The notes under the pieces are model-generated. The model saw only the letters and a list, made by a program, of their open reading frames with translations. It was not told the origin of the DNA and searched no databases. Shown piece by piece: positions 8,078-26,210 of a stretch of 64,000 nt of DNA. Source of the DNA: Clostridiaceae bacterium (GTDB lineage Bacteria; Bacillota; Clostridia; DSM-8532); contig JAAYLX010000027.1 in the NCBI GenBank assembly GCA_012521705.1, forward strand, positions 1 to 64,000. Reading direction: 5' to 3'. Position 1 is the first letter of the stretch, and each line of letters opens with the position of its first letter. Position numbers and translations under genes: made by a program.

Positions 8078-8107
8078 ATTATAACAGTGATGCATGTATA
8101 AAATCAA
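8078..8107 (-). promoter_or_regulatory. Sigma-A type promoter of the ior operon
   Basis: On the minus strand TTGATT (8102-8107) and TATAAT (8078-8083) are separated by 18 bp, giving a leader of about 140 bases before iorA. The -35 box lies only about 25 bp from the inverted-repeat end of the GC-rich element. Confidence 0.65.
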
Positions 8108-8132: not shown

Positions 8133-8492
8133 AGTGCAGTTGAGTGTTTACTCGTCTCCGGCTCAGGAAAGATTTTTAGTGCAAAGGCTCTGCCTTTCAC
8201 GCGTCCTCAGCTCAGGAAAGCTGTAAGGCTCAACGCTCGTTCTCTTGGGGTACGCGGGCGAACTTGCCATCCGGGCAAGCGCCGCTCGCTCGACATCCTG
8301 TCGATCGCCCCCAATCGAACTTCGCATTTCGCCAACAGCTTTTTGCCTTCGCTTGCGGATTGCTCAAAGACAGATCCATTTGCACTAAAAAAGTGATCAA
8401 AAAAGCAAGTGCCGCAAAGACTGCGCCGCTTGCACTTGAAAAACTGTTAATAAACTTCTCCCGAAAGGCAATAATTGTTCTCAAACTGCACT
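8133..8492. repeat. GC-rich, structured element with terminal inverted repeats (MITE-like or RNA-like)
   Basis: A 360-bp block between iorA and the chemotaxis gene is bounded by inverted copies of AGTGCAGTT(T)GAG (8133-8144 and 8480-8492). A second, longer imperfect inverted match pairs about 8172-8197 with 8366-8390. The core is much richer in G+C than its flanks and can fold into a three-way arrangement: TTGGGG (8245-8250) with CCCCAA (8309-8314), enclosing CTTGCC/GGCAAG (8263-8279) and CGACA/TGTCG (8291-8303). The right end supplies the last three codons and stop of the neighbouring gene. No transposase is present. A non-autonomous mobile element or an intergenic structured repeat are both possible; the overlapping short ORFs on each strand look like by-products. 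Confidence 0.55.
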
Positions 8493-25921: not shown

Positions 25922-26210
25922 AATTGCAAAATGCGATGACGGGGAAAAGTAAGGAGTTATTACCTTACAGGGAGAAGCCATCATGGACTGAGAGTGGCTT
26001 TATGAAGTAAAACTTGCTGAAGTTCTCCCCTTAGCACACGAGCTGAAGAACGATAGTTTTGTAGGCAAGTGCGTCGGCCCAACGTTACATGGGCAGAATA
26101 TCGGAGAAATCCCGTATTCGGCAGAGCAGCATCGATTTATTCGATGAAATTGGGTGGTACCGCGGAAGCTTATTCAGCCTTCGTCCCTTTGGGGATGAAG
26201 GCTTTTTTGA
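25922..26210 (+). promoter_or_regulatory. T-box leader, probably tRNA-Phe responsive
   Basis: All T-box landmarks are visible: a long stem I with AGTA (25948-25951) opposite the specifier loop, the 14-base T-box GGGTGGTACCGCGG (26152-26165), and a terminator at the end. A lower helix GGGGA/TCCCC leaves GAA-G-TTC on the 3' side of the loop, matching the usual GAA-N-specifier spacing, so the specifier is read as TTC (Phe) at 26023-26025. The bulge TGGT suits a tRNA with discriminator A, as tRNA-Phe has. Uncharged tRNA-Phe would favour read-through into the aromatic synthesis gene. Confidence 0.92.
26176..26208 (+). terminator. Conditional terminator of the T-box
   Basis: GCCTTCGTCCC and GGGATGAAGGC form an 11-pair stem (one mismatch-free arm each) followed by six T. 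Its left arm lies just after the T-box sequence, so antiterminator formation would compete with it. Confidence 0.93.

What the first reader, a model, noticed from the sequence alone, without database searches (positions are those of the whole stretch)
8133..8492. 360-bp GC-rich element with terminal inverted repeats and a three-way RNA-like core
Inverted AGTGCAGTT(T)GAG ends, a longer imperfect inner inverted repeat, and a core with three compatible helices in a sharply more GC-rich block. It carries no coding signal and sits between the ior promoter and the transducer gene. It looks like a mobile non-autonomous element or a structured intergenic RNA repeat.
Basis: seen in the sequence. Interest (0 to 1): 0.65.

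Follow-up and report, generated by a model that had tools for sequence, protein, structure and literature searches.

The report
Scattered repeat with TwoAYGGAY-like RNA core
The 360-base block is one of about 33 copies of a palindromic repeat that appears to have spread through this bacterium's genome, mostly just behind genes, and its conserved heart resembles a known but unexplained bacterial RNA (TwoAYGGAY), suggesting that this orphan RNA can travel as part of mobile DNA.

Summary
Window 8133-8492 is a mosaic of nested inverted repeats in a GC-rich block. Copies sit behind genes: 14 convergent pairs against 1 divergent. The few sites or copies that could be compared with the nearest relative are not shared. 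The three-way core covaries within the genome (16 of 66 pairs, 0 of 500 shuffles) and between species (24 of 57 pairs). The core recurs in four of 13 other genomes of the genus and in one genome of another clostridial family, inside different terminal repeats. On the minus strand it is a divergent relative of Rfam RF01731 (TwoAYGGAY, twin GGA-loop hairpins). Two distant copies pass Rfam's threshold; the window copy does not (19.9 against 43 bits), but two models built without this genome find it. Most likely: a non-autonomous BOX/MITE-like mobile repeat with a TwoAYGGAY-type core. The mobilising enzyme is unknown, no target duplication was seen, and transcription and CsrA binding are untested. 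New variant of a known kind.

The parts
   Evidence: copies in own genome; outer 9-bp inverted repeat; fold z-scores
8134..8178 (+). degenerate left module (type A, starts GTGCAG, contains CTCGTCTCCGGCTCAGGAAAG)
   Evidence: direct repeat of 8196-8220 at 49-base spacing; the same tandem module in other loci
8179..8385 (+). full-length unit, GTGCAAAGGCTCTGCC ... GACAGATCCATTTGCAC
   Evidence: aligned with 18 other near full-length copies
8179..8197 (+). left terminal repeat of the unit
   Evidence: pattern search: 37 sites in the genome within 3 mismatches, 0 in the reversed-pattern control
8366..8385 (-). right terminal repeat of the unit
   Evidence: inverted repeat; arm covariation between subfamilies
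8203..8359 (-). TwoAYGGAY-like RNA core (sub-threshold match to RF01731, minus strand)
   Evidence: 19.9 bits, gathering 43; matched by independent models R2 and R3
8238..8322 (.). three-way-junction core used for model R1
8263..8279 (.). hairpin CTTGCC-ATCCG-GGCAAG (GGA in the loop on the minus strand)
8291..8303 (.). hairpin CGAC-ATCCT-GTCG (GGA in the loop on the minus strand)
8386..8435 (+). shortened right module ending TTGCAC
   Evidence: compared with the other loci
8406..8438 (-). terminator-like hairpin followed by CTTTTTT on the strand of the transducer gene
   Evidence: scan; fold -17.2 kcal/mol, z -2.5
8436..8491 (+). degenerate outer right module ending CTCAAACTGCAC; overlaps the stop codon of the transducer gene
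   Evidence: sequence

Best explanation
This is one copy of a non-autonomous, BOX/MITE-like interspersed repeat. Its constant part is a structured core related to the TwoAYGGAY RNA (two adjacent hairpins with GGA in their loops on the minus strand, closed by a long stem). Its outer arms differ between species. Source elements, kept under selection for the fold, are copied into intergenic DNA. Copies survive where they do little harm, just behind stop codons, then accumulate mutations and gather further modules, giving nested palindromes. Shown: copy number, module grammar, 3'-of-gene bias, covariation, kinship to RF01731, lack of shared sites where tested. Inferred: active transposition, an enzyme acting in trans, and that the fold matters for mobility rather than for each host site.
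For: Copies: and model matches. Module rule: none in the reversed-pattern control. Gene context: 14 convergent, 1 divergent and 16 co-directional among 31 loci, counting the window, usually within about 100 bases of the upstream stop (14 v 1 p=0.001). Species differences: two repeat sites of one G000 region have no match in the syntenic G012 region (one gap of 87 bases there against 588 here), and the neighbours of three of the four G012 copies match none of the G000 loci. Covariation. Kinship: R2, built without this genome, finds all 20 G000 copies in the searched loci (window copy 62.5 bits, E 5e-16) and the four G313 copies (E 1e-8 to 4e-6). R3, built from G313 only, finds the window copy (30.6 bits, E 2e-4). 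Two G313 copies exceed the Rfam threshold for TwoAYGGAY (51.9 and 45.0 bits). Different ends around the same core. Single-copy changes are as frequent in stems as in loops (0.36 v 0.44 per site, p=0.38), so no constraint on individual copies is detected.
Against: No enzyme was found: no Y1/RAYT-type gene in the genome, and no terminal-repeat pair bracketing an ORF was seen among the hits (not searched systematically). No target-site duplication and no clean empty site (nearest relative only about 76% identical). The window copy is below the Rfam threshold and has NGGAN five-base loops rather than AYGGAY. G-U and A-C cells are equal within the genome, so no strand is marked as the RNA strand.
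Confidence: 0.7

Rival explanations
1. The copies are host genes for a CsrA-sequestering small RNA: the twin GGA loops on the minus strand bind the two halves of a CsrA dimer, as proposed for TwoAYGGAY by Gardner and Eldai (PMC4333381).
For: Both loops carry GGA on the minus strand in nearly all copies read. csrA is present in G000, G007 and G012. The published prediction concerns Clostridia.
Against: G011 (94% complete) and G005 (86% complete) have copies but no csrA found. Loops have five bases, not the ANGGAN hexaloop of high-affinity sites (hexaloop preference from own knowledge). About two dozen scattered copies with terminal repeats and no detected constraint on single copies are unlike CsrB or RsmZ genes. 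No promoter was shown.
Confidence: 0.12
2. The repeats are host transcription terminators: palindromes behind genes that serve both neighbours and became uniform by gene conversion.
For: Position behind stop codons and between convergent genes. The window copy provides a hairpin with a T run for the transducer gene. One locus is a two-way terminator-like hairpin (L146).
Against: Terminator-like sites are only slightly enriched (20 against 13 in shuffles, largest 18) and absent from half of the loci. Terminator function would not explain a conserved three-way core shared across families.
Confidence: 0.1
3. The paired changes are a mutational product of long DNA palindromes (one arm repaired from the other), not of selection on a fold.
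For: Equal G-U and A-C cells and few wobble intermediates in the main covarying pairs.
Against: Covariation extends to short hairpins and to species with different arms, and both GGA loops stay while stems change.
Confidence: 0.08

Closest known systems
TwoAYGGAY RNA (Rfam RF01731; listed in Weinberg et al. 2010, PMC2864571)
   Same: Closing stem, three-way junction, two adjacent hairpins with GGA in the loops, both in register on the minus strand. Two of the four distant G313 copies pass Rfam's threshold.
   Different: Window copy scores 19.9 of 43 bits. Loops are NGGAN instead of AYGGAY. It is embedded in terminal repeats and repeated about 22 times; neither trait is mentioned in the passages read here (only a table row for TwoAYGGAY was found in PMC2864571).
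BOX elements of Streptococcus pneumoniae (PMC3049150)
   Same: Modular intergenic repeat with variable number of modules, stem-loop fold, inverted ends, over-represented between convergent genes, nested insertions.
   Different: Different host order; the arms are complementary nested modules around a GC-rich conserved core. Sequence kinship to boxA/B/C was not tested.
REP/BIME elements and REPINs
   Same: Palindromic, intergenic, behind genes, mosaics of units in opposite orientations.
   Different: No GTAG-tagged end, no RAYT-type transposase in this genome, unit about 207 bp rather than 20-40 bp (REP size from PMC3733652).
MITEs
   Same: Short, non-coding, terminal inverted repeats, many copies.
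   Different: Core GC-rich rather than AT-rich; the interior is conserved while the ends change between species; no target duplication or parent IS identified.

Membership tests
TwoAYGGAY RNA (RF01731) | score at or above the Rfam gathering threshold (43 bits) | tested here: not met
   window copy 19.9 bits, E 1.4; distant copies in G313 reach 51.9 and 45.0
TwoAYGGAY RNA (RF01731) | two hairpins with AYGGAY terminal loops | tested here: not met
   loops are CGGAT and AGGAT, five bases; GGA kept but one loop base missing before it (alignment)
TwoAYGGAY RNA (RF01731) | closing stem plus three-way junction with the two hairpins adjacent | tested here: met
   full-length alignment 1-168; models R2 and R3
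MITE | terminal inverted repeats, under about 600 bp, non-coding, multicopy | tested here: met
MITE | target-site duplication | tested here: inconclusive
   flanks read, none obvious; no close empty site available
MITE | ends shared with an autonomous insertion sequence | tested here: inconclusive
   end-motif hits fall in repeat loci with no terminal-repeat pair seen around an ORF, but loci were not searched for transposases and the assembly is a draft with repeat-broken contigs
MITE | AT-rich | tested here: not met
   core mostly 54-68% GC in a roughly 40% GC neighbourhood
REP/BIME with RAYT | Y1-type REP-associated transposase in the genome | tested here: not met
   PF01797: no match in G000, while the controls rang
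REP/BIME with RAYT | GTAG (or CGTC) tag at one end of a 20-40 bp palindrome | tested here: not met
   modules start GTGCAA
BOX element | modular repeat with variable numbers of a tandem internal module | tested here: met
   one to three tandem 48-50 base A modules
BOX element | sequence kinship to boxA, boxB, boxC | not tested
   no BOX sequences were compared
CsrA-binding small RNA | binds CsrA and is transcribed | not testable with these tools
   only GGA loops and the presence of csrA could be checked

The most novel reading that the evidence does not exclude
TwoAYGGAY-type RNAs are not ordinary small-RNA genes but the constant heart of a mobile element lineage in Clostridia that changes its terminal repeats between species while keeping the twin-GGA-hairpin core. 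The core itself, as RNA or as single-stranded DNA, would then be the part recognised for mobility.
Probability: 0.3. Interest if true: 0.75.

Novelty: new variant of a known kind. Interest (0 to 1): 0.55.

Why it matters
TwoAYGGAY has been an orphan RNA since 2010 with one untested idea (a CsrA sponge). Finding relatives of it as the core of multicopy repeats with terminal inverted repeats in two clostridial families gives a second, directly testable account and warns against reading it as one dedicated regulator. It also adds an unusual pattern for small bacterial repeats: conserved interior, exchangeable ends.

Tried and rejected
REP-RAYT system: no Y1 transposase. Presence in phages, plasmids or viral contigs: none (exact words or blastn only). 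General terminator function: weak enrichment only. One-strand RNA selection shown by wobble pairs: G-U equals A-C within the genome and the cross-species count gives no clear direction once two wobble columns are set aside. GGGCTGTCTNAAAA ends in G007 as an insertion-sequence end: in the loci examined the motif sits mostly as a short hairpin behind stop codons; ORFs there were mapped but not identified. Clean empty site with duplication: G012 is too diverged. First Rfam pass at gathering threshold gave nothing for the locus; the link appeared only through the distant copies. Two literature searches for such elements in Clostridia gave no description.

Full report
1. Observation. It lies between the ior promoter region and the transducer gene, both read on the minus strand.

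2. Copies. A search of the window's own assembly (2.25 Mb, 59 contigs) gave 52 matches to the 360 bases. A covariance model of the 85-base core finds 25 places, 22 of them at E below 1e-12. With terminal-repeat searches (37 sites for each of two subfamily motifs; none in the reversed-pattern control) there are about 33 loci. Two contigs end in or next to copies.

3. Anatomy. Reading the loci side by side shows a grammar. The A module (about 49 bases) begins GTGCAA. The GC-rich core C follows. The B module ends TTGCAC, and A' is A reversed. Modules left of centre almost always begin with GTGCAA, and those right of centre end with TTGCAC; A modules occur in tandem up to three times. Loci are therefore palindromes nested in palindromes. 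The window copy is degenerate A, then the full unit A-C-B (8179-8385), then a shortened B, then a degenerate A'. This explains why the outer ends look like AGTGCAGTT(T)GAG.

4. Fold. On 19 full copies, 95.5% of cells pair, and 16 of 66 pairs have changes on both sides (shuffled mean 8.4, 0 of 500 reach it). G-U and A-C cells are equal (50 and 50). Single-copy changes hit stems as often as loops (p=0.38). My reading, which is inference: the fold was maintained in source elements, while individual copies drift.

5. Position. Of 31 loci with two neighbours, 14 are convergent, 16 co-directional and 1 divergent (window locus added by reading). In co-directional pairs the repeat is usually close to the upstream stop and leaves more than 100 bases before the next start. 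Repeat orientation relative to the upstream gene is mixed. The BOX study reads the same bias as tolerance of insertions by mobile repeats (PMC3049150).

6. Relatives. By blastn only one of 60 other genomes has copies (G012; its contig 49 has the length of JAAYMA010000048.1, a Clostridiaceae MAG). Two repeat sites of one G000 region have no repeat match in the syntenic G012 region. Neighbours of three of the four G012 copies match none of the G000 loci. The core model finds divergent copies in G007 (5), G012 (4), G005 (2) and G011 (1), none in the other 18 genomes of the family. It also finds four in G313, which belongs to another family. G007-type copies have ends GGGCTGTCTNAAAA outside GCCATGCTGTTCAGA. 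G313 copies have terminal repeats of about 26 bases beginning TTAAATTAACC, with unrelated flanks. The core stays and the ends change.

7. Identity of the core. Rfam names the G313 copies TwoAYGGAY (51.9, 45.0, 41.7 and 38.2 bits; threshold 43). The window copy gives a sub-threshold match on the minus strand, 8203-8359, 19.9 bits, with both GGA loops in register. Independent models close the chain. R2, built without G000 or G313 sequences, finds all 20 G000 copies in the loci searched and the G313 copies. R3, built from G313 only, finds the window copy at E 2e-4 (E-values are rough).

8. Mechanism. The best reading is a non-autonomous mobile repeat (inferred) carrying a TwoAYGGAY-type core (shown by homology). 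No mobilising enzyme was found. An effect on the host is local: the window copy gives the transducer gene a terminator-like hairpin, but this is not general. The CsrA-sponge idea (PMC4333381) remains possible but is weakened by copies in genomes without a detected csrA and by five-base loops.

9. Limits. Draft assemblies; no transcript data; no close strains; all genome searches used, so a census of RF01731 was not possible. Gene context rests on a codon-usage ORF caller written here, not on annotation. In the two papers opened on TwoAYGGAY (PMC4333381, PMC2864571) the passages found do not mention a repeat or mobile nature; PMC2864571 holds only a table row, and supplementary notes were not available.

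Noticed in passing
window 25927-26191 (+): T-box leader (RF00230, 96.8 bits) in the intergenic region upstream of a + strand gene.
   Followed up: no
window 8078-8107 (-): Promoter-like TTGATT-18-TATAAT with TG before the second hexamer, upstream of the ior genes; the ATTATAAC stretch recurs upstream of iorA in G012, where no repeat was seen in the roughly 300 bases before the contig end.
   Followed up: partly
window 8481-8492: The last codons and stop of the transducer gene (AGT GCA GTT TGA) lie inside the right terminal repeat; the repeat may have supplied the C-terminus. The G012 homologue is cut by a contig end.
   Followed up: partly
L031 about 1560-1640: A G012 copy is interrupted by another palindromic repeat with arms GGGGACGGTTCT / AGAACCGTCCCC.
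   Followed up: no
G007, G011 and G005 loci L198-L227: GGGCTGTCTNAAAA hairpins of varied inner length (about 37-258 bp) recur behind stop codons; some carry the core, most do not.
   Followed up: partly
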